Shown here: positions 29,978 to 62,338 of the stretch, piece after piece | Layout of the letters: each line of letters opens with the position of its first letter | Position numbering within the stretch: the stretch's first letter is position 1 | NCBI RefSeq assembly: GCF_020748465.1 | Contig: NZ_JAHZMP010000003.1 | Span: forward strand, 62,001-126,000 | DNA length: 64,000 nt | Direction of reading: 5' to 3' | Source of the DNA: Terrisporobacter mayombei | Lineage (GTDB): Bacteria; Bacillota; Clostridia; Peptostreptococcales; Peptostreptococcaceae | Made by a program: the position numbers and the translations under genes | Notes under the pieces: model-generated | What the model saw: only the letters and a program-made list of their open reading frames with translations | Told to the model about the DNA's origin: nothing | Databases searched by the model: none

Positions 29978-32461
29978 TTACATTCCCTCCATAATTCTCA
30001 TTAATTTATCTATTTCATCTACACTTCTTTTTTCAGTTACACAAATCATAGTGCATCCTGATAATTCTGGATAATCTTTGCCTAAATCACATCCGCCAAG
30101 TATATTATTTTCTAACAATTTTTTATTTAGCTCATCTATTTCAATTGGTGATTTTACAACAAATTCATTGAAGAATTTTCCTTTAAATAGTAGTTGAAAT
30201 TTTTCACCTTCACTTATTTTCTTAGCTGCATAATGCGATTTTTGCATATTTTGCATTGCCACTTCTTCATAGCCTTTTTTACCCATAGTTGCCATATAAA
30301 TTGCTGAATTTAATGCACACAAACCTTGATTAGAGCATATATTTGAAGTTGCCTTTTCACGTCTAACATGTTGTTCTCTAGTTTGAAGAGTTAAACAGTA
30401 ACATCTATTTCCATCTCTATCTACTGTTTGGCCAACTACTCTACCAGGCATTTTTCTTATTAAACCTGATTTTATAGCTAAAAATCCCACATAAGGTCCA
30501 CCATAGTTTAATGTATTTCCTAAAGGTTGAGCATCTCCAACAGCCACATCTGCACCCACTTCTCCTGGAGATTTTAACACACTTAAAGTTATTGGATTTA
30601 CACTTAATACATACATGGCTTTTTTGTCATGAGCTATTTGACCAACTTCATCTACATCTTCTATGACACCAAAAAAGTTGGGGCTTTGAAGTAGTACACA
30701 AGCAGTATCCTCGTCTACTACTTCATTCAATCTATTTAAATCCGTCATACCTAACTCCCTATCATAATCAACTTCCACAACTTCACAATCATTAAATTGT
30801 ATATAAGTTTTTAATATTTTTCTTGTTTCTGGATGAACAGTTTTTCCTACTACTACTTTTTTACGTCTAGTTTTTGAAACTGCTAGTAGGCATCCTTCCA
30901 CTGCTGCTGTTGCACCATCATACATAGATGCATTTGCTATATCCATTTTTGTTATTTCTGATATCATTGATTGGAATTCAAATATACTTTGCAATGTTCC
31001 TTGACTTATTTCTGCTTGGTATGGTGTATATGCTGTGTAAAATTCACTTCTCGATGTAATATGTTTTATGATTGAAGGAACATAATGATCATAAGCCCCT
31101 GCTCCTAAAAAACAAGTTAATTGTTCTGTGCTAATATTTTTATCTGCTATGTTTTTTACTATTTGAATAACTTCTAATTCTGATTTTGATTCCTCTAATT
31201 CTAAATCTTTTTTTAATTTTAAACTGTCTGGGATATCTGAGAATAAATCGTCTATTGTATTTACTTTACATGCTTCAAGCATTTTTTCTTCATCTTCACG
31301 AGTTGCTGGTATATATGAATATTGCTTATATTCTTCCTTTACTATCTCTGTTTTTTTATATTGTTTTTTATAAAAAGGTCTTTTTACTATTACTGCACTT
31401 ACAAGTTTTTTTCTTACTCTTACTCCTATTTCACTTCCAATTTTGGCATAATTATTATCTATAATTGCCATTCCTATAAATTTATCTAAAGTAGGAGATT
31501 TAAGTCCAGTAGTAACAAATCCTATAACTTTATCATCTATTTCTATTTCATAGCCACTTCTTACCATACCTTTTCCTTGCATTTCAAAAGCAACTAATTT
31601 TTTTTGGGTTTCTTGTGATTTTAAGCCAATTAAAGCTTCTTTTCCTATGAAATTTTGTTTATTTAGTTTAACAAATACACCTAAACCACCTTCCATAGGA
31701 GATATCTCTTCACTTATTTCATGGCCATAAAGAGGTAAATTCACCTCTGCTCTTAAAGTATCTCTAGCTCCAAGGCCTGCTGGTGTTATATTTTGTTTTC
31801 CTACTTCCAAAATATCATTCCATATTTTCTCTACTACATTTTCATCACAGTATATTTCAAATCCGTCCTCACCAGTATAACCTGTTCTTGAAATTATACA
31901 TTTTTCTCCACAAATCTCTATATTATTTTTAAATTTGTAAAACTCTATATCACTTAAATTTATATTTACTAACTTAGATAGTATTTCTTCAGCTTTTGGA
32001 CCTTGTATTGCCAATTGAGAAACATGATTTGATATGTTATTTATATTTACATCAAATTTTTCACTTTGTCTTTTAATCCATTCATAGTCTTTATCTATAT
32101 TACCGGCATTGATTACTAGTAAATAATTTTCTTCTTTTATCATATAAACTAGTAAATCATCTACTGTCATTCCGTTTTCATAACACATTGGTGAGTATAT
32201 AATCTCTTCTGCTTTCAGATTTGTAATGTCATTTGTAATTAAATACTGTATAAAATTAAATGCTTCTTTTCCCTTAACTTCAACTTCTCCCATGTGAGAA
32301 ACATCAAACAATCCCGCACTTCTTCTTACATAGTCATGTTCTTTAGTTGCACTTATATACTCTAGTGGCATTTCCCATCCTGCAAATTCAAACATTTTTG
32401 CATTTAACTTTTCATGTGTAGAAAATAATTTAGTTCTTTTTAATTCCATGCATTCTATCAT
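29978..32461 (-). CDS. gcvTPA: Fused aminomethyltransferase / glycine dehydrogenase subunit 1 (GcvT-GcvPA)
   Basis: A natural fusion of 827 residues. Residues about 5-365 are GcvT ([58 protein letters not shown]). Residues about 381-827 are GcvPA ([54 protein letters not shown]). The linker is short and charged. Such a fusion is known from Clostridioides difficile and relatives. Start ATG 32461 follows GGGGGAG. The T and P activities are thus made in equal amounts; GcvH and the L protein are not in this window. Confidence 0.95.
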
Positions 32462-34511: not shown

Positions 34512-34634
34512 AATTTTCTCTCCATAAATATTTTTTAATAAGTATTTTTATTGTACTATTATTAGTATCTTATTACAATAAAGTATTATAAGCCAAAATA
34601 TTATATTAGTACTTTGTCTTTATTTTTTGTAAGT

Positions 34635-34665
34635 ATAAAAGTCAGGAGATTCCTCTCCTGACTTT
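34635..34665 (-). terminator. Terminator of the first giant surface-protein gene
   Basis: Stem AAGTCAGGAGA/TCTCCTGACTT (34639-34649 with 34654-34664) with a 4-base loop, then TTTTATACTT on the minus strand. It lies beyond the out-of-frame fibronectin remnant. Confidence 0.82.
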
Positions 34666-34696
34666 ATCTAATCATTCTCAATAAGTTTATATAGTT

Positions 34697-34864
34697 TTAA
34701 TTTATATATTTTATTACGTCACCATCTTTTATAGTGCTTACTTTGATATATTCACCATCCTTGCTAGTACTTCTATATATCTCGTATCCTTTTGCATATT
34801 TAGCATTTTTCCAAGATACTCTAACAAGTCCTGAGCTTGATGTGCTTAGTTTTACTTCTATTTT
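34697..34864 (-). pseudogene. Out-of-frame fibronectin III fragment after the first giant gene
   Basis: In the -1 frame relative to the giant gene, 55 codons read KIEVKLSTSSSGLVRVSWKN and GYEIYRSTSKDGEYIKVSTI, a clear fibronectin III front half. They end at a stop at 34697. The frame touches the stop region of the large gene (AGA AAA TAG; a one-base back-step gives AAA ATA GAA). The missing second half shows decay. The second giant gene has the equivalent fragment, complete. Confidence 0.8.
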
Positions 34865-37800
34865 CTAGGGCAAGTCTTTATACTATCTGAATATGAACCT
34901 AAGTAAATATTGTCTTTTATTTTTTTGTACGCCTTTACTTTATAATAATAGTTTTTACCACTTATAAGTTTCTTATCTGTATAAGTAGTTTCTCCATTTT
35001 CTTCTACTTGATCTATCAATTCATATTTTTTATTTTCCGAATTGTATCTGTAAATTCTATAACCTTCTGCTCTACTTACTTTATCCCAAGATAAAGTTAT
35101 ACTAGTTGAAGTTCTATTTTTAGTAGTAAGCCCTTTAACCTTCAATGGTGTAGTTGCTGTAGTTAATACTGTTGAGTGTTGTCCATTATATATATTTTCA
35201 CCTATTTTTTTATAAGCTCTTATTGCATATTTATATGTTGTTCCACTTTTTAGATTTTTAATCTCATAACTAGTATTATCATTTTCTGAAACTGTCTTTA
35301 AATAAGCATAAGTTTTATCTGATTCATTGTATTCATAAATTTTATATCCTTCACAATTTTCAACTTTACGCCATTTAACTTTCATGCTAGAAGTTGTTCT
35401 ATTTGTAGTAGTCACACCTGTAACTTTATTTGGATAAGTCGTAGTTGTTAGTACAGTTGAGTATGGACCAAAGTAATCATTTTCATTTACTGTTTTATAT
35501 GCTCTTACTGCATATTTATATGTTGATCCATCTTTTAATGAACTTATATTGTAACTTGTATTGTCATTTCCTTCTACTGTACCTATCAGTTTATAAGACT
35601 TATTATTCGAATTATACTCATACACTTTATATCCATCAGCATCATTTATTTTATTCCACTTTAACTTAAATCCTGATGTTGTTCTCTCAGTTGATGTTAA
35701 TCCTGTTACCTTAGACATATCTGGATTCATAATTTTAAATTCTTTTATTATAGTCCCAGTATAGTTTGCTTTACCAGTTATAGTTATAGTAGCTGTTCCT
35801 GGTTTTATGTTATTGGAGTATTTAGCATCAAAATCTTTTTCACTTTCTAATCCGTCAATTGTTACTTTTGGTTTTTGCTCTTGACCATCAAATTCTACTT
35901 CTGTAGAGCTTAGTTTAACATCCATATCTTCTATAGATTTAGCTCTTATTGTATATTCCACATATGCCATATCTGCATAAGTATTTCCTCTTGCTTTTAC
36001 TCTTACTTTTGCTGTACCAGCATTTGTATTATCCAAATATGAAATTGTATAGTGTTCTTTATCTATAACTTCTCCTGTTTCTTTATCCGTTATAGTTACT
36101 GCTGGAACCTTTTTATTTCCATTGTAAGTTGTTTTTGTATAGCTTAATTTAATATTTTCATCACCTATATATTTACCTTCTGCTCTACAGTTATATTCTG
36201 TGTGGCTACAAATATATTTGTATGAGCCATCCTCTAGATCAATTCTTTGGAAATCATGTCCTGGTGCTTTAGCCCCTATATAAGTTTTACTTATGTTACA
36301 CTCTGCACATGTTACTATTTTTTCTCCTCTTTGTGTACAATTGTGCTCTTCAGTAATTTTGCTATCTACATTATGAGATATACCATCTGTTCCAAAATGG
36401 TATACTTCGTCTTTTCCATAAGTAAACCAACCAGTTTGGAATTGTCCTTGGATAAAGTACATTTTCTTATCGGTATTTCCTACTGTTGCAAATCCTGTGT
36501 AAGTTCCTAATTCCTTAGAAGAACCACATTCTTTACAAGTTAAATATCCATCTTCATAAGAATAATCGTGACCATCTTGGCAGCTACCATTCTTAGTTTT
36601 TGTAAATGAATCTACTAATGTTCCATTACTTTCACGTGCTTCAATTTTAAATTCACTTCCATTGGTTGAAGCCGTAATATATAGTCCATCATAGTCTGAT
36701 TCTAATTTTGCAAAATGGAAATCTTTATTATCTGTTGGAGCATACGTTTTATCACCAGCTGAACCAGCTACCACATATACTGTTCCATTTTTTTCATCAA
36801 CTTTTCTGTTATTTAAAGGTTTTGTTCTTGCATATGCATGATCATGACCTGAAAATACAAAATCAAGTCCTACTTCATCTGCTACTGGAGGTAATAATTC
36901 ATTTATTATTTCATTTCCTCCTGCAGTATTTGTATAGTATGGCGGAGAATGTGTCACTAGTATTTTCCATGTTGCATTACTTTTTTTAGCATCTTCTCTT
37001 AACCATTCTAAATCCTTTTCAAGTTGTGCTCTAGATGTAGTATAGTTTATTACTCCTACATATACATTTCCATACTGTGCTGAATAATGACGTTTGTCTG
37101 GTAAACTATATATATTCTCAGCTATGTCAGCATAAGAATCACCATAGTGTTCATGGTTGCCTGTTACAGTTACAAAATCAGTGCTTCCAATTTTCGATAA
37201 AGAGCCTAAAGTTGTATTCCAATCTCCATATATATCAGCTTTATCAACTAAATCACCAACTTGTATTCCTGCATTGTAATCTACACCCGATTCGTTAAGT
37301 CTATCTACTATTCTATCTAATTTAGATGTGTTTTGTTGCTGTATATCTCCAATTACAAATAGGTTTGTATCTGTTCCTTTTCTTTTTAATGTAAATGTGT
37401 CTGTTTCTGACCATTTTTCTCCATCACCAACACGATAAATATATTTTACATTTGGAGTTAAACCTTCTGCAACTACGTTATTTATTCTAGCTGCTCCATT
37501 TTCTGCTGCTATAGAAGAACCAGTAAATGATTGTATTTTTGATGTACCTGGGCACTCTTTAAATGCTGCTTCTCCTTTTGAATCATACTCTTCTTTTTTA
37601 GCTATTTGCATTATAGCCTTAGCTTTAGATGTTTTTGGATGTGCAAACCATGATACCTTTTTGCTATTAGTAGAGTTTGATGTTGCATTATTTATTATAT
37701 TAAACGGCATACCATCTTCTTGACCCGTCGAACTTACACAGTGGAAAGTCGTAGAAAAAGAATATTTACCATCTTTTTCTGCATAAATAGAATATTTAGC

Positions 37801-40800
37801 CGGTTCTTTACATAGTTCAGTAGCATCTACCTCACCATTTTTATCTGTTTGTCCAATGTTCTTGTCTTCTCCATAATAAACAGTAGCTCCTTCAACTGGA
37901 TTACCATTTTCATCTTTTACATATACCTTAGCACTTTCTCCAACTATTAGTGTATCTGCCTCTACTGTATAATCACCTTGTACCTCTATACTCTCCATCT
38001 TACTTGAGAATGTTCCAGATGCGTTATCTTCTGATTCTGTTGAATATTCTATACTTCCTTTAGTTACTCCATAAGAATATTTAGATCCTTCTTTTAAGTT
38101 TCTCGGTATTTTAGAAGTTATTGTTGCTATACTTCCTTCACCAGAATTAAATGATAAGCCATCTTTACGAGTTGCATTTAGTTTTATTTCATTGTTCTTC
38201 TTAATATATTCAAATGTTCCTTCGTAATTATCATCAAACTTTACATCATGTTCATTAAAGTCACTTCCTACTTGTATCGTTGCAGAAACCGATTTAACGT
38301 CTTTTACTTTATTTGATTTTAATTCTAGTTCGTAATTTCCATTTAGCTTTGGATTTTCTAATGTTTTTGGTTCTAAAGAAACATTAGTGTATTTATCATC
38401 ACCTTTTATTGTAAATGTTCTACTTAAAGTTGCCTCATTACCAAATCCATCACGCACTAGTACTTCTACTGTATGGGTACCGTTTGCTAATACTAAATCA
38501 TTTAGGTAAAGTGTATTATCTCCTTTTTGAAGAACGTAATTAGGATGTTCAGTCATATTTTGTCCGTCTACAAAAATATATACTGTATCATGATCTATTC
38601 CTGTTGTATACTTGTTTTCTATATCATGGAACATTGATTTGAAAGAAACTGTATTTGTTTCTATCATATCACCATCTTTTAAGTCTTTTCCATTTAGTTG
38701 TAAATTATCTACTACTGGAGCTTCTGTATCATCTATATTTGCACCGTAAACGAATCTTAAGTTATCTATATATATACTACCTTTACATTGAGATTTCGGA
38801 ATTCTAGTTCCATCTGATAAGAAATCCCCATTACTTCCCTCTGCATTGTTAAGGTGCATTAATCTTATAGTTTCTCCTGCACTTAATGTAAATGGTCCTG
38901 TTAAGTGACTTAAATCAGCTTCGACATACTTCCATCCAGTCCAGTTGATTCCTCCCAGATTGCCATCTTTCATTTGCTCTGTAAAGTTTAAAGTTTGAAG
39001 AGCACCTTTGCCATCTCTTACACGTATACGTAACCATAGGTTTGGTGTTCCTTCTGGAGCATATACCCACATACCTATAGCTGTTGGGCTTCCTTCTATC
39101 GGTTTTGCATCTTCTGCGAATCCTATACAAGCTCCTTCCGTTCCGTTTATTTCAGAGAAGTCGTAATTAAGTTTTAAGGAGTTATTACCAAATCTAACTG
39201 GTTCTCCACTAGCTATATCAACTATTTCTGCTGATTCTTTTCCCCCTCTTTTGTCATCTGGATTAGAACCGTTAAAGTAGTGGCCAGTAACTAATTTAGT
39301 ATCTGTACTATCTATTTTATTTCCATCTTTATCATATAATTGCGATATACCGCCAGAAACTGCTGCTCTAGTAAAAGTCCAATAGTCTTTTGCTGGTGTA
39401 ACTTCTCCTGTTTCTGGATTTTTGTAATCCTCAAAGTCCATAGCAATAGAAGGTAGTCTACCTATTATTGCATGTATTTTTCCACTTACACTTGAGTTAT
39501 ATACTGAGGTAGCTGTAATATCTCCATTTACTGTTTCTGAATCAGAAGATGTAAATATATTCCCATTAAATGTTCCCATTCTTTTATCCGATAAAGTCCA
39601 GTTAAAGTCTCCATCTTTATATATTACATCTCTTCCTTTATATTTAACTATTATTCCTAAGTTACTACTTTTATCAAATCCTAAACTTATTTCCTCATTA
39701 CTAAAAGAAATACTATCTGGTTTCGCTATGGTTATATAAGTTGTTCCAACAACTTTACCACCGCTAGTTAAGTTAACTTTAATATCACCAGTTTTTCCAC
39801 TAGATGTAAATACTCCTTTGTCATTTATAGAACCAAGTTCTTTGGATTTCTCATCTAATTCCCATTTTATATCACTTGGAAGTGATGCTGATCCACCTGC
39901 AGAATCAACACCTTTTGCAGAAAACTCTACTGAAGAGTTTGGTGTATATACTGTGTTACTTGGTGAAACTGAAGCATGATCAAATTCACCTGTTGGCTTA
40001 GCTGTAGAAACTATAAGTAGAGTACTACTTACTTTTCTTTCCGTTCCATCTGATGGATTGTTTCTAATATTAAACTCATCACTACCCTCATATTGCGATG
40101 CGTATGTCGCTGATCCTCCACCATCAAGATTTAAAGCTGTTTCACACCCCAAACCAACTAGCATTTCTGCCACTTCTTGATATGTACGACCAGAAGACAC
40201 TGGATAGTTACGTCCATGAGTTGTAAATGTAACAACTGTTCCATCTGGCTTAATACCTACTGCACATCTTGTAGATATATAATTACTATCAAGATTAGGA
40301 GATACTTTTCCATCCTTAACTAATATTGAATCCCCTCCGATAGCCGCTTCAACATCATCAAGAGATACTTTTCCATCTCTAATTACTGCGCTACCGTCTT
40401 TTAGTACGGCAAAGTAAGGTGCATTATTAGCATGGTGATAAGCTTTTCCTTCCATAACTAAGGCACCATTTGGAGCACCATTTGACATATTATAGAAATC
40501 GCCATTGATACCTGCAACAACATTTAATCCTGTTGCTTTTTCAGCTGATTTAACTTGGTTTGTTAATTTATCCATCTTCCATGAAGTTGCATCATAACCA
40601 CCATAACCAGCTATAATTTTTGTTGTTGAAGTATTTTTTAAATCTACTTCACAAACATAGTCGATATTTTGTTTGTTTCCACTTTTGTTGTTTGTAATTA
40701 TTTCACTTTCAACAATACCCGGTGCAATTTTTTTCGTATTATTAGATACAACATATGTGTCTTCTGGTACAACTATACTTGCTGCAAAAGCAGAAATAGC

Positions 40801-40884
40801 CGTATTACTGGCCATTATCGCAAGTACCATAGTAATAGCTAATACTTTAGTAAAAAAACTACCCATGTTTTTCCCTCTAAACAT
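34858..40884 (-). CDS. Giant secreted phosphodiester glycosidase / metallophosphoesterase (paralog A)
   Basis: 2008 residues with a signal peptide (1-35, ending AFA-A). Order: phosphodiester glycosidase/NAGPA domain (about 75-295; GINGDFYNMS, NLDGGGSAT); Ig-like region (300-475); jelly-roll-like binding region (480-715); Ig-like (720-830); cohesin-like (832-965); carrier Ig (975-1050). A purple-acid-phosphatase-like N-domain (1065-1170) leads to a metallophosphoesterase (1175-1400; GD 1180, GDLVD 1210, GNHE 1242, H1312, GHDH 1346). Then one cell-wall-binding-like repeat (1462-1502), a Cys-His segment, two MBG-type Ig domains (1572-1718) and three fibronectin III domains (1723-2005). There is no LPxTG or SLH anchor. 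The tyrosine typical of purple acid phosphatases is replaced in GDLVD. Substrate is unknown. Confidence 0.85.
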   Translation of the reverse strand: MFRGKNMGSFFTKVLAITMVLAIMASNTAISAFAASIVVPEDTYVVSNNTKKIAPGIVESEIITNNKSGNKQNIDYVCEVDLKNTSTTKIIAGYGGYDATSWKMDKLTNQVKSAEKATGLNVVAGINGDFYNMSNGAPNGALVMEGKAYHHANNAPYFAVLKDGSAVIRDGKVSLDDVEAAIGGDSILVKDGKVSPNLDSNYISTRCAVGIKPDGTVVTFTTHGRNYPVSSGRTYQEVAEMLVGLGCETALNLDGGGSATYASQYEGSDEFNIRNNPSDGTERKVSSTLLIVSTAKPTGEFDHASVSPSNTVYTPNSSVEFSAKGVDSAGGSASLPSDIKWELDEKSKELGSINDKGVFTSSGKTGDIKVNLTSGGKVVGTTYITIAKPDSISFSNEEISLGFDKSSNLGIIVKYKGRDVIYKDGDFNWTLSDKRMGTFNGNIFTSSDSETVNGDITATSVYNSSVSGKIHAIIGRLPSIAMDFEDYKNPETGEVTPAKDYWTFTRAAVSGGISQLYDKDGNKIDSTDTKLVTGHYFNGSNPDDKRGGKESAEIVDIASGEPVRFGNNSLKLNYDFSEINGTEGACIGFAEDAKPIEGSPTAIGMWVYAPEGTPNLWLRIRVRDGKGALQTLNFTEQMKDGNLGGINWTGWKYVEADLSHLTGPFTLSAGETIRLMHLNNAEGSNGDFLSDGTRIPKSQCKGSIYIDNLRFVYGANIDDTEAPVVDNLQLNGKDLKDGDMIETNTVSFKSMFHDIENKYTTGIDHDTVYIFVDGQNMTEHPNYVLQKGDNTLYLNDLVLANGTHTVEVLVRDGFGNEATLSRTFTIKGDDKYTNVSLEPKTLENPKLNGNYELELKSNKVKDVKSVSATIQVGSDFNEHDVKFDDNYEGTFEYIKKNNEIKLNATRKDGLSFNSGEGSIATITSKIPRNLKEGSKYSYGVTKGSIEYSTESEDNASGTFSSKMESIEVQGDYTVEADTLIVGESAKVYVKDENGNPVEGATVYYGEDKNIGQTDKNGEVDATELCKEPAKYSIYAEKDGKYSFSTTFHCVSSTGQEDGMPFNIINNATSNSTNSKKVSWFAHPKTSKAKAIMQIAKKEEYDSKGEAAFKECPGTSKIQSFTGSSIAAENGAARINNVVAEGLTPNVKYIYRVGDGEKWSETDTFTLKRKGTDTNLFVIGDIQQQNTSKLDRIVDRLNESGVDYNAGIQVGDLVDKADIYGDWNTTLGSLSKIGSTDFVTVTGNHEHYGDSYADIAENIYSLPDKRHYSAQYGNVYVGVINYTTSRAQLEKDLEWLREDAKKSNATWKILVTHSPPYYTNTAGGNEIINELLPPVADEVGLDFVFSGHDHAYARTKPLNNRKVDEKNGTVYVVAGSAGDKTYAPTDNKDFHFAKLESDYDGLYITASTNGSEFKIEARESNGTLVDSFTKTKNGSCQDGHDYSYEDGYLTCKECGSSKELGTYTGFATVGNTDKKMYFIQGQFQTGWFTYGKDEVYHFGTDGISHNVDSKITEEHNCTQRGEKIVTCAECNISKTYIGAKAPGHDFQRIDLEDGSYKYICSHTEYNCRAEGKYIGDENIKLSYTKTTYNGNKKVPAVTITDKETGEVIDKEHYTISYLDNTNAGTAKVRVKARGNTYADMAYVEYTIRAKSIEDMDVKLSSTEVEFDGQEQKPKVTIDGLESEKDFDAKYSNNIKPGTATITITGKANYTGTIIKEFKIMNPDMSKVTGLTSTERTTSGFKLKWNKINDADGYKVYEYNSNNKSYKLIGTVEGNDNTSYNISSLKDGSTYKYAVRAYKTVNENDYFGPYSTVLTTTTYPNKVTGVTTTNRTTSSMKVKWRKVENCEGYKIYEYNESDKTYAYLKTVSENDNTSYEIKNLKSGTTYKYAIRAYKKIGENIYNGQHSTVLTTATTPLKVKGLTTKNRTSTSITLSWDKVSRAEGYRIYRYNSENKKYELIDQVEENGETTYTDKKLISGKNYYYKVKAYKKIKDNIYLGSYSDSIKTCPRK

Positions 40885-41007
40885 TTACTTCCCCCCAGTT
40901 TTATAAATTGTCAGATTAGCAATTTTAATTTGTTTAATTTGCTAATTTTTGCTGTTACAAGAAATAATTATATACTATTTTTTAAAGTTATGGTATCGTT
41001 TTTCTAA

Positions 41008-41067
41008 AAAATAAGCACTAATTTTCAATCTTTATACATTTAAATATAAATCTGAAAATTAGTGCTT
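41008..41067 (-). terminator. Terminator between the two giant genes
   Basis: Stem AAGCACTAATTTTCA/TGAAAATTAGTGCTT (41013-41027 with 41053-41067) followed by ATTTTTTAG on the minus strand. Each giant gene is therefore probably a separate unit; the promoter of paralog A must lie in 40885-41012. Confidence 0.82.
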
Positions 41068-41082
41068 TCTTCTATTTATTAT

Positions 41083-41373
41083 CTAGTTTTTATATACTTT
41101 AATATCACTATAGTAACTATTAACTTTTTCTTCATTTTCTTTTTTCTCATTTACTAACTTATAAGCTCTTATTTTATAATAATATGTTCTTCCTTTAGTA
41201 AGGCTTCTATTAGTATAACTTGTTGTGTTACCATTTTTTATTGTAGCTACTTTTGTATACTTTCCATCTTTACTAGTTGATCTATATATTTCATAACCAC
41301 CCGCATATTTAGCTTCGTTCCAAGATACTTTTACAGATGTATATGAAACTTGACTTGATTTTATGGTCTTGTA
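41083..41373 (-). pseudogene. Out-of-frame, otherwise intact fibronectin III module after the second giant gene
   Basis: An open -1 frame overlaps the last codons of the giant gene. It encodes about 95 residues (IKSSQVSYTSVKVSW, GGYEIYRSTSKDGKYTKVAT, GRTYYYKIRAYKLV) ending at a normal module boundary, YYSDIKVYKN. It has no RBS of its own. The giant frame stops at TAA (41361-41363) only a few codons after this frame opens. Either a one-base deletion cut off the last module, or it is joined by frameshifting; no canonical slippery site is visible. Confidence 0.75.
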
Positions 41374-44300
41374 CAAGTCTTATAAGTATCTGAGTATTCT
41401 CCTAAGTAAGTATTCTTACCTAATTTGCTACATGCTTTTACTCTATAAGAATAATTTTTACCACTAGCTAACTTCTTATCTGTGTAAGTAGTTTTTTCTT
41501 TTCCTTCTACTTCGCCAATCAACTCATACTTTTTATCTTCTGAGTTATATCTATATACTCTGTAACCATCAGCATTAGATACTTCTTTCCAAGATAAAGT
41601 TATACTTGTAGATGTTCTATCTGTAGCTTTCACAGCTTTAATTTTTAATGGACTTGTACTTGTTGTTAATGTAGATGAATACTCTCCATTATAGGTACTA
41701 TCACCTATTTTTTTGTATGATCTTACTGCATATTTATAAGTTGTTCCATTTTTTAATCCAGTTACATTATAGCTTGTATTTCCGCTTCCTAATATAGTTT
41801 TTACAAGTTTATAAGTATTATCTTCTGAATTGTATCTATAAACTTTATATCCATCGCAATTTGTAACTTTACTCCATTTTAACTTAAATCCTGAAGTTGT
41901 TCTATTTGATGTAGTAACTCCAGTTACTTTTGCTGTATAAGTAGTTGTTGTTAATACTTTTGAGTATTCTCCCAAGTATTTATGCCCATCTGATTCTTTA
42001 TATGATCTTACCGCATATCTATAAGTCGTTCCAACTTTTAAATTTGTTAAGTCATAGCCTGTATTTTCATTTCCTGATATATCTTTTACTTCTTTGTAGC
42101 TCTTGCTAGATGGATTATATTCATAGATTTTGTATCCATCACAGTCTGCAACTTTATTCCATTTTAATGTCATACTAGAAGTAGTTCTATTTTTAGTAGT
42201 AAGTCCTGTTACCTTTGATGGTGCTTTCACTACACTCATACTAAATACATCAGAATATGCTCCACTATAAGTAGATTTTCCTACAGCTTTATATGCTCTT
42301 ACTGCATATTTATAAGTTGTTCCAGCCTTCAAATCTTCTACTTTATAAGCAGTGCTATTTTTTCCTTCTAAAGTTTTTAATAAAGTATAAGACTTATCCT
42401 TTTCATTGTATTTATAAACTTTATATCCTGAAGCACTGCTTACATTATTCCATTTTAATTCCATACTCTCTGATGTTATATTATCAGCATATAATCCAGT
42501 TACCTTTCCTGGATAAGTGCTTGTTGTTATTACATTTGAATATGGACCTACTTGACTATAATTGTTGTCTAATTTCTTATATGCTCTTATAGCATATCTA
42601 TAAGTTGTTCCTTCTTTTAAGTCTTTTAGTACATAACTTGTATTATCTTTTCCTTCTACTGTATCTACTAATTTATAAGTTTTATCAGTAGCATTATATT
42701 CATAAACTTTGTATCCATCAGTATCTTCAACCTTGTTCCAACTTAATTTAAATCCTGTTAAAGTTCTATCTGAAGATTTTAATCCTGTTACTTTATCTAA
42801 TTTTTCTTCTGAAATTTTAAATTCTTTTGTTATAGTTCCAGTATAATTTCCCTTACCAGTTATAGTAACTTTAGCTGTTCCTGGTTCTATATTATTAGAA
42901 TATTTAACAGTAAAATCTTTTCCACTTTCTAGCCCTGATATTGTAACTTCTGGTTTCTGCTCTTCACCACTGCAATCAATTTGTGTAAAGCTCAGCTTTG
43001 CATCCATGTCTGATATAGATTTAGCTTTTATAGTATATTCTACATAAGACATACCTGCATATGTGTTCCCCTTGGCCTTCACTCTTACTCTAGCAGTACC
43101 TGCGTTTACATTATCCCAATAAGATACTGTATAATCTTCTCCTTTTACTAGGCCATCAATTGTAACTGCTGGTGACTTTTTATTTCCATTGTAAGTAGTT
43201 GTTGTATAGCTTAATTTAATTTTTTTGTCACCAATATATTTTCCTACTGCTTTACAGTTATATTCTTTGTTTCCACAAATATATTTGATGCTACCATCTG
43301 GTTGTTCTTCTGGTTGGAAATAGTGTCCTGGTGCCTTAGCTCCTGTGTATGTTTGGCTTATATTACACTCTTTACATGTTACAATTTTTTTCCCTTGTTG
43401 TGTACAGTTATGTTCTTCAAGTATCTTAACATCTAAGTCATGAGCTAAACCATCATTACCAAAGTGATATACTTCATCTACTCCATAAGTAAACCATCCT
43501 GTTTTGAATTTACCACCTATGAAATACATCTTTTTATTAGTTTTTTCATCTTTAGCAAATCCTGTATATTCTCCTAATTCCTTAGACGAACCACATCTTG
43601 AACAAGTTAAATATCCATCATCATAAACATAATCATGTCCATCTGAACAATCTTTTGACGTTTTTGTTTTTGTGTAAGTATCTATTACTGTACCGTCTGC
43701 TTCATGAGTTTCTACTTTAAACTCGCTATCTGTAGCTGATCCTGTTAAATATATGGCACCAAAATCTGTACTTGGAGGATTCGCAAAGTGGAAGTCTTTA
43801 TTATCAACTACACCATAAGATTTTTCACCTGTAGAACCACATATATAATATACTGTACCATCATCTTTATTGACTTTACCTTCTTTTATAGGTTGTGTTC
43901 TAGCATAAGAATGATCATGTCCTGAGAATACAAAATCAATTCCTGCTGCTTCTGCTACTGGTGGAACTAATTCATTCATCATTTCATTAGAACCTGATGG
44001 GTTTGAATAGTATGCTGGTTGATGTGTAGTAAGAACTTTCCATTTAGCTTTACTATTTTTAGCATCTTCTTTTAACCATTCTAAATCAGATTTAAGTTGA
44101 CTCTTACTATTTGTATAACTTATAGTTGCAACATAAACATTTCCGTATTCCACAGAATAACGTCTAGAATTTGGTAAATTGTAAATATTTTGGGCTGCAT
44201 CGCCATCTAAATCTCCCATAAATTCATGATTTCCTAAAACATGAACCATGTCTACTCCGCTTAGATATGAATCACCAAATATATTTAGTACGTCTACCCA

Positions 44301-47300
44301 GTTACTATAAACTGAAGCATCATCAACAGAATCTCCTGTTTGAATACCAAAACTATAATTTCCTTTTGATAACTGTTGAGAAATCTTATCTACATTTTCT
44401 TTATTTGCTATTTGTGTATCTCCAATAACAAAGAAGTTTGTATTTGTTCCTGAGCGTGTAGTTTTAAATTCTTTCACTTCTGACCAGTTTTTACCATCAC
44501 CTACACGATATGCATATTTAGTATTTTTATTTAAATTAGTTGCATTTACCTTATTTACTCTTACAGAATAGTTTTTACTAGCATCTGAAGATCCTAAGAA
44601 ACTTTGAAGTTTACTTGTTCCCTCTTTATTAATAAATGCTGCTTCTCCCCTTTTATCATATTCTGCTTTAGTAGCATATTGAATTATTGCTTTGCTGTCA
44701 GATTTTTGTGGATTTGATATCCAAGTTATATTTTTGCTACCTGTAGCATTGCTTGTTGCATTTGATATAACATATTCAGGTAGCCCATCTTCATTACCTG
44801 CAGAAGTTGAACTTTGAACATTTATTGAGTAAGAAATATCTTCACCTTTTTCAGCATAAATAGTATATTTTCCTACTTCTTTGCATAATTCATCAGTCTC
44901 AAGATAACCTTCTTTATTTGTTTTTCCTAAAAGAGTTCCATCTGATTTATAAATAGAAGCATCCTCAACACCTTTTTCTTCTAAATCGTAAACATGAATT
45001 TTTCCACTAGACCCTACAATCATAGCTTCTGATTTAACAGAAAGTGGTGCCACTACTTCTAAGCTTTCTTGTGATGTGGCAAAAGTGCCACTGAATCCTT
45101 CTTCTTTTTCGCTGTTATAAGTAACTTTACCCTTTTGAGCGCAATATGTAAATTTTGATCCCTTTTTCAAATCTTTAGGTACTTTAAAACTTAATGTTGC
45201 TATATTTGCTTCACCTTTATCTGAAAATAAACCACCTATTAAGGATTGTTCTTCTTTTCTAGTTGCATTTAATTTTATAGTCCTTGCCTTAGAATCGTAT
45301 GTAGCAGTACCTTCAAATCCATCATTAAATTTGACTTCATAATCTTTAAAATCATTATTTATTTTAATTTCTGTTTCTATAGATTTTATATCTCCTATAT
45401 TGTCAGTAGATAATCCCAGCTCAAAGTTTTTATTTAAAATAGGATTACCTTCACTTATTGGTGAAAGAGTTACATTTGTATATTCTTTATCACCTTTTAC
45501 AATAAAGTTTCTTGTTTCTATTGTTTCATTACCGAACTTATCACGTACTAAAACTTTTACATTATGTGGTCCATTTGAAAGTTTTACATCATATAAGTTT
45601 ATAGCATTATCTCCAGGTACTAAAACACAGTTCTTTTCTGAAGACATGTTTACACCATCTAAATAAATACGAACTGTATCATGATCTATTCCACTAGTAT
45701 TTTTATTTTCAATATCACTAAATAAAGATTTAAAACTAATAGTATTTGTATCTATTGTCATTCCATCTTTTATTTCAGTATTATTAGCTGTTATACTATC
45801 TACTTTTGGATTATCTATATCATCCTTATTGGCACCATATACAAATTGTAAATTATCTATATATATGGAACCTTTACGTTGAGCTTCTGGCACTTCAACC
45901 ATTTCATAAGTTCCATCTTCTTTTGTTGGACCTTTTGTATAGAAGCCTTGTTGTGTTCCAGGCACATACATTAATCTCATAGTTTGACCTTTCACTAATG
46001 AGAATGGTCCAGTACGTCCTTCCAGACTAGCCTCAACATATTTCCATCCATTCCAGTCAATACCACCCATTTTTCCTTCAGAAATTTTAGCTTCCTCTGT
46101 AAAATTCAGTGGTACAAGATTTCCATTTCCATCCTTTAAATATATTCTAAGCCAAAGGTTAGGTGTTCCTTCTGGCGCATATACCCACATTCCTATACCT
46201 GTTGGTGTTCCTTCTATTTTTTTAGTTTCTTCAGTAAATCCTAAGCAAGCTCCTTCTGTACCTGTAATTCCACTAGAAAAATCATAGTCAAGTTTTAATG
46301 AGTTGTTGCCAAAACGAACTGGTTCTCCACTATCTAAATCAACCAACTTAGCTGATTCTTTACCTCCACGTCCATAATTTCCAAGTAATAATAAAGACTC
46401 TGTATCATTTGCCTCTCTTGTTATTGTATAAAAATCTTCAGCCTTTGTAGTAGTGCCTGTCTCCTCATCTACAACATCTTCAAAGTCTAGCATAACTGAA
46501 GGTAATCTACCGATAATTGCATAGACACTTCCTGACACTGAAGAATTGTATACAGAAGTTGCTGTAATATGACCATTAATTGTTTCTGAGCTTGATGATG
46601 TAAATATATTTCCATTAAATGAACCCATTTTTTCATTATCCATAGTCCATTTAAAATCACCATCTTTATAAATTACATCTCTACCTTTATATTTAACAAC
46701 TAATCCTAGATCACTACTTTTATCAAAACCTAAACTTACCTCTTCACTACTAAAAGAAATACTATCTGGTGCTGCTATTGTAATTTGCGTAGAACCTACT
46801 ACTTTTCCACCACTTAATACATTTATTTTAACATCTCCAGCTTTTCCATTTGATGTAAATAAACCTTTATTATTTATTTGTCCATAAGAAGAGGATGAAT
46901 TATCTAGTTTCCACGTTAAATCACTTGGAAGTGTCGCTGCTCCTCCTGATGAATCTACCCCTGTAGCTTCAAACTGAACTTTTGAATTTGGTGTATAAAC
47001 TAAGTCATTAGGAGAAACTGAGGCATGATCAAATTCTCCTGTTGGTTTTGCAGTAGAAACTATAAGTAATGTACTACTTACCTTTCTCTCTGTTCCATCT
47101 GATGGACTATTTCTTACTTCAAAATTCTCACTACCTTCATATTGAGATGCATAAGTTGCAGAACCACCACCATCTAAATTAAGAACTGTAACACATCCAA
47201 GACCTATCATAAGTTCAGCCATTTCTCTGTATGTATGACCATTAGACAATGGATAGTTACGTCCATGAGTAGTAAAAGTAACTACAGTTCCATCTGGTTT

Positions 47301-47942
47301 TATTCCTATAGCTTGTCTAGAATATAATATGGTTTGGTATGAGTTATTATCATCAAGATTAACTACTTTACCATCTCTAACCATAATTACATCTCCACCA
47401 ACAGCTGATTCTACATCATTTATTGGTACATTTCCTTCTCTAATTTCAGCTTTACCATCTTTAGTTATAGCAAAATATGGATTAGTCCCCTTGTTATATG
47501 CCTTCCCTTCCATGATAAGCATTCCTAAAGGTTGGCCATTTGACATGTTATAAAAATCAGCATTAATTCCTGCTACCACATTTAATCCTGTTTTTTTCTC
47601 AGCTGCCTTAGCTTGATTTGTTAACTTATCCATTTTCCAAGATGAAGCATCATAACCAGCATATCCAGAAATAATTTTTGTCGTCGATGTACCTTGTAAA
47701 TCAATTTCACATGCATAATCAATATTTTGCTTTGTTCCCGACTTATTGTTTGTTACAATTGTACTTTCTTCAATACCTGGAGCTACTTTTTTTGTAGTAT
47801 TCGATACTACATAACTGCCTTCAGGCACAGTAATATTTGCTGCAGCAATCATAGACAAATTGTTCCCCACCCCTAAGGCAACAATCATTGTAAACACTAA
47901 CACTTTCATTAGTAACTTGGTCACTTTACCATTTCTATCCAT
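41361..47942 (-). CDS. Giant secreted phosphodiester glycosidase / metallophosphoesterase (paralog B)
   Basis: 2193 residues, a tandem paralog of the next gene with the same domain order and high similarity throughout. Signal peptide 1-35; phosphodiester glycosidase about 75-298 (GINADFYNMS, NLDGGGSAT at 255); jelly-roll-like region about 480-705; cohesin-like about 820-955. The phosphatase-like N-domain (about 1060-1165) is followed by the metallophosphoesterase (GDTQ 1174, GDSVDD 1203, GNHE 1237, H1307, GHDH 1341). One wall-binding-like repeat (about 1457-1500), two MBG-type Ig domains (about 1567-1710) and five fibronectin III domains (about 1715-2190) follow, two more than paralog A. No sortase signal is present. 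Probably released or held non-covalently at the wall. Confidence 0.85.
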   Translation of the reverse strand: MDRNGKVTKLLMKVLVFTMIVALGVGNNLSMIAAANITVPEGSYVVSNTTKKVAPGIEESTIVTNNKSGTKQNIDYACEIDLQGTSTTKIISGYAGYDASSWKMDKLTNQAKAAEKKTGLNVVAGINADFYNMSNGQPLGMLIMEGKAYNKGTNPYFAITKDGKAEIREGNVPINDVESAVGGDVIMVRDGKVVNLDDNNSYQTILYSRQAIGIKPDGTVVTFTTHGRNYPLSNGHTYREMAELMIGLGCVTVLNLDGGGSATYASQYEGSENFEVRNSPSDGTERKVSSTLLIVSTAKPTGEFDHASVSPNDLVYTPNSKVQFEATGVDSSGGAATLPSDLTWKLDNSSSSYGQINNKGLFTSNGKAGDVKINVLSGGKVVGSTQITIAAPDSISFSSEEVSLGFDKSSDLGLVVKYKGRDVIYKDGDFKWTMDNEKMGSFNGNIFTSSSSETINGHITATSVYNSSVSGSVYAIIGRLPSVMLDFEDVVDEETGTTTKAEDFYTITREANDTESLLLLGNYGRGGKESAKLVDLDSGEPVRFGNNSLKLDYDFSSGITGTEGACLGFTEETKKIEGTPTGIGMWVYAPEGTPNLWLRIYLKDGNGNLVPLNFTEEAKISEGKMGGIDWNGWKYVEASLEGRTGPFSLVKGQTMRLMYVPGTQQGFYTKGPTKEDGTYEMVEVPEAQRKGSIYIDNLQFVYGANKDDIDNPKVDSITANNTEIKDGMTIDTNTISFKSLFSDIENKNTSGIDHDTVRIYLDGVNMSSEKNCVLVPGDNAINLYDVKLSNGPHNVKVLVRDKFGNETIETRNFIVKGDKEYTNVTLSPISEGNPILNKNFELGLSTDNIGDIKSIETEIKINNDFKDYEVKFNDGFEGTATYDSKARTIKLNATRKEEQSLIGGLFSDKGEANIATLSFKVPKDLKKGSKFTYCAQKGKVTYNSEKEEGFSGTFATSQESLEVVAPLSVKSEAMIVGSSGKIHVYDLEEKGVEDASIYKSDGTLLGKTNKEGYLETDELCKEVGKYTIYAEKGEDISYSINVQSSTSAGNEDGLPEYVISNATSNATGSKNITWISNPQKSDSKAIIQYATKAEYDKRGEAAFINKEGTSKLQSFLGSSDASKNYSVRVNKVNATNLNKNTKYAYRVGDGKNWSEVKEFKTTRSGTNTNFFVIGDTQIANKENVDKISQQLSKGNYSFGIQTGDSVDDASVYSNWVDVLNIFGDSYLSGVDMVHVLGNHEFMGDLDGDAAQNIYNLPNSRRYSVEYGNVYVATISYTNSKSQLKSDLEWLKEDAKNSKAKWKVLTTHQPAYYSNPSGSNEMMNELVPPVAEAAGIDFVFSGHDHSYARTQPIKEGKVNKDDGTVYYICGSTGEKSYGVVDNKDFHFANPPSTDFGAIYLTGSATDSEFKVETHEADGTVIDTYTKTKTSKDCSDGHDYVYDDGYLTCSRCGSSKELGEYTGFAKDEKTNKKMYFIGGKFKTGWFTYGVDEVYHFGNDGLAHDLDVKILEEHNCTQQGKKIVTCKECNISQTYTGAKAPGHYFQPEEQPDGSIKYICGNKEYNCKAVGKYIGDKKIKLSYTTTTYNGNKKSPAVTIDGLVKGEDYTVSYWDNVNAGTARVRVKAKGNTYAGMSYVEYTIKAKSISDMDAKLSFTQIDCSGEEQKPEVTISGLESGKDFTVKYSNNIEPGTAKVTITGKGNYTGTITKEFKISEEKLDKVTGLKSSDRTLTGFKLSWNKVEDTDGYKVYEYNATDKTYKLVDTVEGKDNTSYVLKDLKEGTTYRYAIRAYKKLDNNYSQVGPYSNVITTSTYPGKVTGLYADNITSESMELKWNNVSSASGYKVYKYNEKDKSYTLLKTLEGKNSTAYKVEDLKAGTTYKYAVRAYKAVGKSTYSGAYSDVFSMSVVKAPSKVTGLTTKNRTTSSMTLKWNKVADCDGYKIYEYNPSSKSYKEVKDISGNENTGYDLTNLKVGTTYRYAVRSYKESDGHKYLGEYSKVLTTTTYTAKVTGVTTSNRTTSGFKLKWSKVTNCDGYKVYRYNSEDNTYKLVKTILGSGNTSYNVTGLKNGTTYKYAVRSYKKIGDSTYNGEYSSTLTTSTSPLKIKAVKATDRTSTSITLSWKEVSNADGYRVYRYNSEDKKYELIGEVEGKEKTTYTDKKLASGKNYSYRVKACSKLGKNTYLGEYSDTYKTCTRP

Positions 47943-48149
47943 AAGACTCCCCCTATTAATTTACTTTCAATTTGTAATTATGCATATATTTTAATATATT
48001 CTACCAATTACATTTAATTCCTCTATATTAGATTAAAATATGACAAATTTCTTCATTTATTAATAAATTTTTATATAATATAAAACGAATGTATCGTAAT
48101 TTATCTATTTTATCTTACAAAGTTTAATCTAGTGCAGTTTACTATCAAA

Positions 48150-48181
48150 ATAAAAAGCCAGAAGTTTTATCTCCTGACTTT
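48150..48181 (-). terminator. Terminator of brnQ
   Basis: Minus-strand AAAGTCAGGAG pairs with CTTCTGGCTTT using two G-U pairs, then TTTTATTTT, 12 bases past the stop. The 47943-48149 stretch, the upstream region of paralog B, shows no other motif I recognise. Confidence 0.7.
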
Positions 48182-48192
48182 ATTTATGGCTA

Positions 48193-49560
48193 TTATATTG
48201 CATCAGAACTTCCAGTAAAAGTTTCTTCTTTCCCCCTACATAGTAAATAGGACAAAACAGCTATTATTCCACAACCTATAACCCACGCTAACTTTATATC
48301 AGCAAGTGGCATTTTCAAATAAAAACTGTCAAATATGCCCAAGTTCCATCCGCATAAATAACTATATGTATGAACAGCATCTAATATGCCATATATGAAA
48401 CTTACAATCATCGTACATTTGGCAGCAAATAAAAATCTAACATTTTTAACATTAGGTATTAAAACATAGTATAAAGTTAAAATAATCAAAGGAGGTGACA
48501 TGGAGTCTAAAAGCGGTCCCACATATGCTAATATATTTTCCAAACCTAATGCTCCCATAATAGTGCTACTAACACAAATTATAATTACAGACTTTTTATA
48601 AGATAATTTTTTATTTGAAACATCTTCAAAAAACTCTGCTGCAGCTGCTGTAATACCGACTGCCGTTGTCAATGATGCTATGGTTAATGCTATACAGTAT
48701 AAAACTCCACCTACATTTCCTAAAAGTAAAAAGGCTACTTTTGTGTAAAGTTTAACATAAGTTAAATCTCCTGTTGGACCAGAAATTCCCCCTGTTGATG
48801 CACCTATAATCATGTGACCAAGATGACTCAAAGTTAACATTCCAATTCCAAGTATACCTACTTTTATAATATTTTTATTCATCTTATCTGGTGTAACACC
48901 TTTGACTTTTAAGTTATTTAGTATAACTATTCCAAATACTAATGCACATAGAATTTCCCCTGTTGCATAACCTCCCGTAAATCCGTAAGAAAAGGCTGAA
49001 TTATCATAAGATTTTGGTGCCCAAGTTGTAGATATTGGTGTTAATAATCCTTTTCCAATTATACAGATAACTATAATTACCAATACTGGAAATAAAATTT
49101 TACTTATTTTATCCATAGTATCCGAACGTCCAGATAAAAACCAGTAGGTAATTAAGTAAAACACTATAGAAAATAATATTATTGGTATTTTACTATTAGT
49201 ATTTAATCCTGTAGCTTGAACTATCCCATCCCAAGAAGATGCGCTCATTCTAGGAACTGCATATAGTGGACCTAGTAATAGTATTGTCATTGTAGTAAAT
49301 ACTGGTCCAAATTTCGGCATAATATTCTTAGCTAAAGAATTGTATGTTCCATTACCTCTTACTAATGCTACATAAGCAAGAAGAGGCAATAATAATGCGG
49401 TTAAAAAAGCTCCTGCAAAAGCTACAAATACTGAACTACCACTTTCTTTTCCCCAGTTCATCGGCCATGTCATACTTGCAGATCCAAAATGCATGGAAAA
49501 TAAAGCTGCTCCCATAAAAAATAGTGTTCCAATTGATAAATCTCTCTCATTTTTTTTCAT
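48193..49560 (-). CDS. brnQ: Branched-chain amino acid carrier (BrnQ/LIVCS family)
   Basis: Sodium-coupled symporter for leucine, isoleucine and valine: 455 residues, about twelve helices. The LIVCS motifs are GTLFFMGAALFSMHFGSASM at the N-terminus, LLLGPLYAVPRMSASSWDG and SLTTAVGITAAAAEFFEDVS. The gene is monocistronic. Two identical TGTAAACGTTTACA palindromes upstream suggest catabolite (CcpA) or other LacI-family control, sensible in an amino-acid fermenter. Confidence 0.92.
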   Translation of the reverse strand: MKKNERDLSIGTLFFMGAALFSMHFGSASMTWPMNWGKESGSSVFVAFAGAFLTALLLPLLAYVALVRGNGTYNSLAKNIMPKFGPVFTTMTILLLGPLYAVPRMSASSWDGIVQATGLNTNSKIPIILFSIVFYLITYWFLSGRSDTMDKISKILFPVLVIIVICIIGKGLLTPISTTWAPKSYDNSAFSYGFTGGYATGEILCALVFGIVILNNLKVKGVTPDKMNKNIIKVGILGIGMLTLSHLGHMIIGASTGGISGPTGDLTYVKLYTKVAFLLLGNVGGVLYCIALTIASLTTAVGITAAAAEFFEDVSNKKLSYKKSVIIICVSSTIMGALGLENILAYVGPLLDSMSPPLIILTLYYVLIPNVKNVRFLFAAKCTMIVSFIYGILDAVHTYSYLCGWNLGIFDSFYLKMPLADIKLAWVIGCGIIAVLSYLLCRGKEETFTGSSDAI

Positions 49561-49586
49561 AAAGCCCTCCCTTATAAAGGTTCTTT

Positions 49587-49600
49587 TGTAAACGTTTACA
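49587..49600. promoter_or_regulatory. cre-like operator, proximal
   Basis: Perfect 14-bp palindrome TGTAAACGTTTACA, matching the cre core TGNAANCGNTNNCA, 27 bases before the brnQ start and downstream of the probable promoter. Confidence 0.75.
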
Positions 49601-49665
49601 CAGTCAATAAAAGTGTATAATTACAATAAGTAGGCATATCTTAATTAAATAAAATATAACATTTT

Positions 49666-49679
49666 TGTAAACGTTTACA
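49666..49679. promoter_or_regulatory. cre-like operator, distal
   Basis: Second identical copy of TGTAAACGTTTACA, centre 79 bases from the first. A pair this exact suggests cooperative or looping repression by CcpA or a LacI-type regulator; no LacI gene is encoded nearby. Confidence 0.75.
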
Positions 49680-49877
49680 TATCCTTATACTTTATATATA
49701 GTCTGTTTTATAGTGGTTGTCAATTATTTTTCTTTCTTAGTTTTTATTAACAAAGTCACAGATTATTTTTCTTATTTGTCGATCATATTTAGTAGAAATT
49801 TAGGCCATATGACATAATTTTTTTCTATTACTAAAGTTTAAAATAATATTTATTTAATATGTTAATATACATAAAAA

Positions 49878-49990
49878 TCACACTTCTTTATCTGAATATA
49901 AAAGATAATCTCTTAATCCACTCCAGTATATACTTTTAGTCAGTTCCATTATCTCTTCATCAGAAAAGTTTTGACCTTTAATGTTATTGT
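49878..49990 (-). pseudogene. Out-of-frame C-terminal tail of the EFR1 ferredoxin gene
   Basis: In the -1 frame, from about 50035, the sequence reads NGNIKNGYNINNFMNNNIKG and ends RDYLLYSDKEV with a stop at 49878-49880. It plausibly is the original C-terminus. The junction is the homopolymer pair TTTTTAAAA near 50037; one extra A would restore a single frame. Confidence 0.6.
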
Positions 49991-50755
49991 TCATAAAATT
50001 ATTAATGTTATATCCATTTTTAATATTACCATTTTAAAAACACTTGGTTGCAATGCTTTATTAGGACAATAGTATAAACAAGCTGTACAAAAGTTACACA
50101 TAAATTTAGGTTTCTTGTTGCTCATTATAATGTTTCCACAAGAGCATATTTTCTCACACAATCCACACCCACTACAGTTTTTATTTACTTTTATTGTTTT
50201 TCCTAAAATTTTCACACCTATTTTTTCTATTTCAAATACTTTAGAAATACATTTATCTATTATAGGAGGGTTAATTTTTCTTATCTTTTCATTAACTATA
50301 TCATCTATAATAAGATCTATTTTCTCAGGAAGAATATTAAAAAGTGCTCTTGATAAATAATCTGGTGTAGGAATTAGAAAATTACTAGGCATAATCAGTG
50401 AATTTTCATAAAAAACTTCACAATCTTGTTTCTCTGATAACTTTATACTACTTAATCTCCCCGCTCTATTAAAAATAACTTTTCCTCCTGCTGATATAGA
50501 TATAATTGCAGCCTTAGTTTTATTTCCCTTAGGTAAATTTTTGATCCACTTATATACTACTTCCGGTGCATTGGCTCCATGTATAGGAAAAATAAGTATA
50601 ATTAAATCACAACTTTTTTGACTTACTAGATTATTCTTAGATACTTTCTCAAAAAAAACATCATAGTTCATATCTATTAACTTATTATTTATAAGTTCTG
50701 CTATAATCTTGCTACTACCAGTACCTGTATAATAAATTATTTTAATTTTATTCAT
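49991..50755 (-). CDS. EFR1 family flavodoxin/ferredoxin protein, tail frameshifted
   Basis: About 254 residues. The N-terminal flavodoxin fold has an FMN loop YYTGTGSSK (about 8-16) and FPIHGANAPEVVYKWIKNLP. Two C-terminal [4Fe-4S] motifs follow, CSGCGLCEKIC and CNFCTACLYYCP. EFR1 proteins are electron-transfer proteins of anaerobes with unknown partners. The last about 19 encoded residues (after ALQPSVFK) look unlike the family and arise from a shift at TTTTTAAAA; the natural tail continues in the -1 frame. ATG 50755 follows GGGAGGG. Confidence 0.82.
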   Translation of the reverse strand: MNKIKIIYYTGTGSSKIIAELINNKLIDMNYDVFFEKVSKNNLVSQKSCDLIILIFPIHGANAPEVVYKWIKNLPKGNKTKAAIISISAGGKVIFNRAGRLSSIKLSEKQDCEVFYENSLIMPSNFLIPTPDYLSRALFNILPEKIDLIIDDIVNEKIRKINPPIIDKCISKVFEIEKIGVKILGKTIKVNKNCSGCGLCEKICSCGNIIMSNKKPKFMCNFCTACLYYCPNKALQPSVFKMVILKMDITLIIL

Positions 50756-50874
50756 CAAAATCCCTCCCAGACTTTAAACATATTCACTATTATTTATTAT
50801 ATTTAATAATATTCTTCTATTATTAGGTATATTATTAATTTGAGTTTTATCATTAAATTTTTACAATATAACAT

Positions 50875-56844: not shown

Positions 56845-56869
56845 AATTAATTCCCCCTAAAAATTATTT

Positions 56870-58015: not shown

Positions 58016-58028
58016 ATCTATGGCCTCC

Positions 58029-58889: not shown

Positions 58890-58891
58890 AT

Positions 58892-60037: not shown

Positions 60038-60042
60038 GTTCT

Positions 60043-61077: not shown

Positions 61078-61299
61078 TTTTATTTCCCCCTATTTATAAT
61101 TTTTTTTTCTAACTTAATTCTATATGAAATGCCTAGTTTATCTCTGTCATAATTTGCTATAAATATCAGACTATTTAGCTTTTTACAAAACAATTGCAAA
61201 GTATGAAATAAAAGTATATAAGTATATTAAGGGGATAATTTTATTATCAAATTTAGCTATATATAAACTTTTCAATCTGAAAAATAAGGGGTAAGTAAA

Positions 61300-62271: not shown

Positions 62272-62296
62272 TCATAAATTTATAAATACAATTCAA

Positions 62297-62338
62297 AATA
62301 GCTATAAATTAGTTTTTTATTAACTAATTTATAGCTAT
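62297..62338. terminator. Bidirectional terminator
   Basis: Stem ATAGCTATAAATTAGTT/AACTAATTTATAGCTAT with a short T-rich loop, between the convergent AraC and DUF3810 genes. Confidence 0.85.

What the first reader, a model, noticed from the sequence alone, without database searches (positions are those of the whole stretch)
34697..41373. Both giant genes are followed by a last fibronectin III module in the -1 frame
Paralog A stops at TAG with 55 codons of a fibronectin III half continuing in the -1 frame. Paralog B stops at TAA with a complete, roughly 95-residue module in the -1 frame. The same break at the same module border in two diverged paralogs is hard to explain by chance or sequencing error. 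A frameshift older than the duplication should have decayed in B, yet B is intact. Options are gene conversion, recent duplication, or low-level frameshifting making a longer form. No canonical slippery heptamer is visible, which weighs against programming.
Basis: partly seen in the sequence, partly recalled or inferred. Interest (0 to 1): 0.7.

Follow-up and report, generated by a model that had tools for sequence, protein, structure and literature searches.

The report
Frame-broken end caps of twin enzymes
Two neighbouring giant surface-enzyme genes in a clostridial bacterium have both lost their last building block through a one-base frame slip at the same spot, most likely recent ordinary damage to a horizontally gained gene pair rather than a programmed switch, although the shared spot is not fully explained.

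Summary
Genes A and B (minus strand) are NAGPA + calcineurin-type phosphoesterase + fn3 proteins. Each stops at the homologous codon, and fn3 sequence continues in the -1 frame: 54 codons in A, a complete 93-codon domain in B. The -1 module is the C-terminal fn3 "cap" that other proteins of the genus carry in frame.

Between A and B the cap has kept protein-level constraint (29/42 identical residues; neutral mean 19.3, P<5e-5; pN/pS 0.37, against 0.28-0.62 in frame). An old, unread frameshift would have destroyed it (P about 0.002). Gene conversion and recent duplication are rejected: A and B differ at dS about 1, including around the junction.

A, B and two more genes form a 16-kb block absent from two sister species. 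A's half-module ends about 30 bases from the block's border, which explains its missing second half. No in-register slippery heptamer exists. A allows one-tRNA re-pairing (A AAA TAG); B allows none. Sequencing error is very unlikely.

Best reading: recent, separate C-terminal truncations of imported genes, with the caps now unread relics. The shared break position (1-8% by chance) is unexplained, so recoding stays a low-probability alternative.

The parts
34858..40884 (-). Gene A, 2008 aa: signal-peptide-like N-terminus, NAGPA, purple-acid-phosphatase N domain, calcineurin-like phosphoesterase, 3 fn3 in frame, stop TAG
   Evidence: ORF list, Pfam
34697..34861 (-). Half fn3 cap of A in the -1 frame (54 codons plus TAA)
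   Evidence: translation, 62% identity to B's cap
41361..47942 (-). Gene B, 2193 aa: same architecture with 5 fn3 in frame, stop TAA
41083..41364 (-). Complete fn3 cap of B in the -1 frame (93 codons plus TAG)
   Evidence: Pfam fn3 26.2 bits, AlphaFold model and PDB match, aligned with in-frame terminal caps to the last residues
34633..34663 (-). Terminator-like hairpin just after A's relic; related to the terminator at the same place in sister genome G005
   Evidence: alignment of intergenic regions
34671..50853 (.). About 16-kb block (A, B, branched-chain amino-acid transporter gene, flavodoxin/ferredoxin-like gene) absent from sister genomes G003 and G005; borders lie between 34591 and 34670, and between 50854 and 50910
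   Evidence: blastn of syntenic regions, border alignment

Best explanation
A and B are imported, diverged paralogues of the secreted NAGPA/calcineurin-phosphoesterase type, which ended, like other proteins of this genus, with a terminal fn3 cap. In each gene a net one-base frame change at the linker before the cap now ends translation one module early. The breaks are recent relative to the A/B split and most likely separate events. The caps are unread relics, and A's cap also lost its second half at the border of the imported block. The truncated proteins keep their signal peptide, both catalytic domains and 3 or 5 fn3 modules, so they probably still work. Shown: the frames, homology, constraint and block border. 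Inferred: that the caps are not translated and that the two events were independent.
For: The cap is in frame in at least 8 other proteins of the genus or family. Every other fn3 module that Pfam finds in 6 genomes of the genus lies in a long open frame. The cap kept amino-acid constraint between A and B: 29/42 identical, null mean 19.3, P<5e-5, third-position excess p=0.02; pN/pS 0.37 against 0.28, 0.32 and 0.62 in frame. Neutral drift of 0.5 substitutions per site would leave 93 codons open in 0.2% of runs, so an unread break must be young. A's relic ends about 30 bases from the border of a block absent from two sister species. No heptamer, and no re-pairing site in B. Nine flanking genes (10.6 kb) have the same lengths in sister genome G003, and eight of nine in G005, which argues against indel errors.
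Against: Two independent indels falling in the same interval of about 4 bases with the same sign is a 1-8% coincidence even if only the linker and cap accept indels. Both junctions are followed by RNA somewhat more stable than expected (z about -2 to -3), unlike 8 in-frame equivalents.
Confidence: 0.6

Rival explanations
1. Conserved recoding: the frame change predates the A/B duplication and a share of ribosomes shift to -1 at the stop, adding the cap to some molecules.
For: Same codon and same direction in both diverged copies; -1-frame protein constraint persisted; A has A AAA TAG, where the P-site lysine tRNA can re-pair perfectly in -1; stable RNA after both stops, B z -2.7 to -3.3.
Against: B has no codon in its 16-base shift window that re-pairs in -1 or +2. 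The junction sequences are not conserved. The RNA structures are not homologous and start too far from the stop in A. 5% of windows in these genes fold as well. A could gain only half a domain. Known bacterial programmed sites carry conserved motifs (PMC3711429).
Confidence: 0.12
2. One ancestral frame change before the duplication, never read, with slow decay of both caps.
For: Explains the identical position.
Against: dS between A and B is about 1. Neutral decay for half of that leaves B's cap open in 0.2% of runs, and predicts 19 rather than 29 identical residues of 42.
Confidence: 0.08
3. A frame change arose in one copy and was copied into the other by gene conversion.
For: The copies lie side by side, 0.5 kb apart.
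Against: Nucleotide identity at the junction is the lowest of the C-terminal region except the truncated end of A's relic (34/60), and no run of identity spans it. A conversion old enough to be hidden meets the decay problem.
Confidence: 0.07
4. Sequencing or assembly error at both junctions.
For: The genome is a 325-contig draft.
Against: Nine flanking genes (10.6 kb) have the same length in sister genome G003, bounding the chance of two errors at the two places at about 1e-6; the two junctions differ in sequence; A's cap is truncated as well.
Confidence: 0.05
5. On/off variation of the cap: strains of the population carry in-frame and out-of-frame alleles, so constraint is kept by recombination.
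For: The intact cap in B fits a switchable tail.
Against: No tandem repeat or homopolymer longer than 4 at the breaks; no conspecific genome available.
Confidence: 0.08

Closest known systems
Indel-truncated genes / pseudogene clusters of fs-genes (Antonov et al. 2013, PMC3711429)
   Same: Frame transition without a conserved motif, found in one genus only, downstream frame still recognisable
   Different: Two paralogues broken at the same codon, and the lost part is a single C-terminal module of an otherwise intact gene
Programmed -1 ribosomal frameshifting (dnaX, IS transposases)
   Same: 0-frame stop overlapped by an open, constrained -1 frame; stable RNA downstream
   Different: No X XXY YYZ heptamer, no conserved junction, no possible site in B
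ShfP/YvnB radiation of secreted calcineurin-like phosphoesterases with NAGPA and adhesion domains (PMC11188070)
   Same: NAGPA plus calcineurin-like phosphoesterase plus fn3 and other surface domains; Bacillus homologues align over residues 13-1428 at about 33%
   Different: A and B end in fn3 arrays; distant homologues end in dockerin-like, S-layer-like or cell-wall repeats

Membership tests
Programmed -1 ribosomal frameshifting | In-register slippery heptamer or other re-pairing site | tested here: not met
   No heptamer at either junction; only a single-tRNA site in A, none in B
Programmed -1 ribosomal frameshifting | Downstream or upstream stimulatory signal conserved between copies | tested here: inconclusive
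   Stable RNA after both stops but different structures; 5% of gene windows fold as well
Programmed -1 ribosomal frameshifting | Position and direction of the shift conserved among diverged homologues | tested here: met
   Same codon, same -1 direction in A and B; no further orthologues with the cap to test
Programmed -1 ribosomal frameshifting | Trans-frame product is made | not testable with these tools
   Needs peptides, footprints or reporters
Indel-truncated gene / pseudogene tail | Relatives carry the module in frame | tested here: met
   In-frame caps in at least 8 paralogous proteins; orthologues unavailable
Indel-truncated gene / pseudogene tail | Young relative to the time needed for decay | tested here: met
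   Cap open and constrained
fn3 domain (PF00041) for B's -1 module | Profile match over most of the domain, above the cut-off | tested here: met
   26.2 bits, profile 6-75 of 84; fn3 fold in PDB search
Phase variation by slipped-strand mispairing | Homopolymer tract or short tandem repeat at the break | tested here: not met
   Longest run is 4 A in A and 2 C in B's shift window

The most novel reading that the evidence does not exclude
A heptamer-independent, stop-associated -1 recoding event, inherited through a gene duplication, adds an optional terminal fn3 cap to giant secreted phosphoesterases.
Probability: 0.1. Interest if true: 0.75.

Novelty: new member of a known kind. Interest (0 to 1): 0.33.

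Why it matters
If ordinary, it is a clear snapshot of imported surface-protein genes losing their terminal module, with one truncation tied to the import border. If the caps are read, it would be a recoding signal unlike known bacterial ones, and a test case of how parallel frame breaks arise in duplicates.

Tried and rejected
Orthologues of A/B for a direct frame comparison: none in 71 family genomes, none close in 84,980 species (nearest about 42% with different C-termini), plasmids only 33%, none in viral contigs. Hopping to a matching landing codon: no CCA codon in the -1 frame of B's linker (read directly). Internal start for B's cap: a TTG in the -1 frame lies in the overlap, but without a well-placed ribosome-binding site and without a signal peptide. 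A 5-base tandem repeat in B lies downstream of the stop and cannot have caused it. Transcript slippage: runs of only 4 A, and in B the run starts inside the stop codon and extends downstream, so slippage there leaves the stop in place. Two literature searches on such frame breaks in fn3 surface proteins and on this genus found nothing relevant.

Full report
OBSERVATION. The two genes lie on the minus strand. A (40884..34858, 2008 aa) ends in TAG and B (47942..41361, 2193 aa) ends in TAA. In both, the -1 frame is open from an ATA codon that overlaps the stop: 54 codons in A, 93 in B. B's -1 product passes the Pfam fn3 cut-off (26.2 bits), is modelled as an all-beta sandwich (mean pLDDT 77), and the top PDB matches are fn3 domains. 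A's half is 62% identical to B's.

WHAT THE GENES ARE. Both carry NAGPA (PF09992), a purple-acid-phosphatase N domain, a calcineurin-like phosphoesterase (PF00149) and 3 or 5 fn3 modules; they are 62% identical to each other. This is the architecture of the ShfP/YvnB radiation of secreted phosphoesterases, for which teichoic acid or other surface phosphoesters have been proposed as substrates (PMC11188070). Bacillus and clostridial homologues align over residues 13-1428 at 33-42% identity but end differently, in dockerin-like, S-layer-like or cell-wall repeats.

THE -1 MODULE IS A NORMAL TERMINAL CAP. Eight other proteins of the genus or family end in an fn3 module of the same subtype, in frame and finishing at the same residues. 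Every other fn3 module found in 6 genomes of the genus lies in a long open frame; B's cap is the exception, in a 98-codon frame (A's half is below threshold). The family motif T-R/K-P just before the break is still read in frame 0 in B, so B's frame change lies at or just after that motif; A and B agree in frame 0 through K-T-C-x-R. The breaks therefore fall within about 4 bases of each other.

AGE OF THE BREAKS. Over 42 comparable codons of the cap, A and B share 29 residues. With the same number of differences placed at random the mean is 19.3, and none of 20,000 trials reached 29; third positions carry an excess of the changes (p=0.02). pN/pS is 0.37, within the range of three in-frame modules, 0.28, 0.32 and 0.62. 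A-B synonymous divergence is about 1. Neutral drift for half of that leaves B's 93 codons open in 0.2% of simulations; only drift below about 0.1-0.15 substitutions per site is comfortable. Therefore either the cap is still read, or the break in B is much younger than the duplication. Recent duplication and gene conversion are excluded by the high divergence, with identity near its lowest at the junction.

SURROUNDINGS. In two sister genomes with 90-94% identical flanks the whole stretch from about 34.6-34.7 kb to 50.9 kb is absent. There the ABC-permease gene is followed directly by the DUF2628 gene, and G005 has a terminator there that resembles the one just after A's relic. A and B are absent from all five other genus genomes, so gain by this lineage is the simpler reading. 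A's half-module ends about 30 bases from this border, which accounts for its missing second half (inference). Nine flanking genes have identical lengths in G003, and eight of nine in G005, so frame errors in the assembly are rare; two errors at these two places would be about a one-in-a-million event.

RECODING TESTS. No X XXY YYZ heptamer is in register at either junction. In A the lysine tRNA on AAA before TAG could re-pair perfectly one base back; in B no codon in the 16-base window where a shift could occur can re-pair in -1 or +2. The RNA after both stops folds better than shuffled sequence (A z about -2 to -2.6, B -2.7 to -3.3) while 8 in-frame equivalents do not (z from -1.7 to +1.2). 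But the two structures are not homologous, and about 5% of windows along these genes do as well. In A a shifted product would carry only half a domain. A large survey separated programmed sites by conserved motifs, and treated motif-less breaks confined to one or two genera as pseudogene clusters (PMC3711429).

CONCLUSION. The best reading is two recent, separate C-terminal truncations in an imported pair of surface-enzyme genes, with relic caps. The weak point is the shared position: 1-8% by chance depending on how much sequence tolerates an indel. Conserved recoding (0.12) and on/off variation of the cap (0.08) are not excluded. The genus was not named by the tools; that it is a Terrisporobacter-like Peptostreptococcaceae is my inference from G+C content, genome size and gene content only.

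Noticed in passing
window 34671-50853: A 16-kb block holding A, B, a branched-chain amino-acid transporter gene and a flavodoxin/ferredoxin-like gene is missing from two sister genomes with 90-94% identical flanks.
   Followed up: partly
window 55911-62308: A second block (sugar isomerase-like TIM barrels, Gfo/Idh/MocA oxidoreductase, class II aldolase, PfkB kinase, AraC regulator; looks like inositol-type catabolism) is also absent from both sister genomes.
   Followed up: no
window 29978-32461: The glycine-cleavage T protein and the first P-protein subunit are fused in one 827-aa gene, followed by the second P subunit gene.
   Followed up: no
window 48154-48181 and 34633-34663: Terminator hairpins with similar sequence (AAGTCAGGAGA..) occur after the transporter gene and after A; they may have served as homology when the block entered or left.
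   Followed up: partly
window 41263-41366: The RNA after B's stop folds unusually well (z about -3) compared with in-frame equivalents of the same module.
   Followed up: partly
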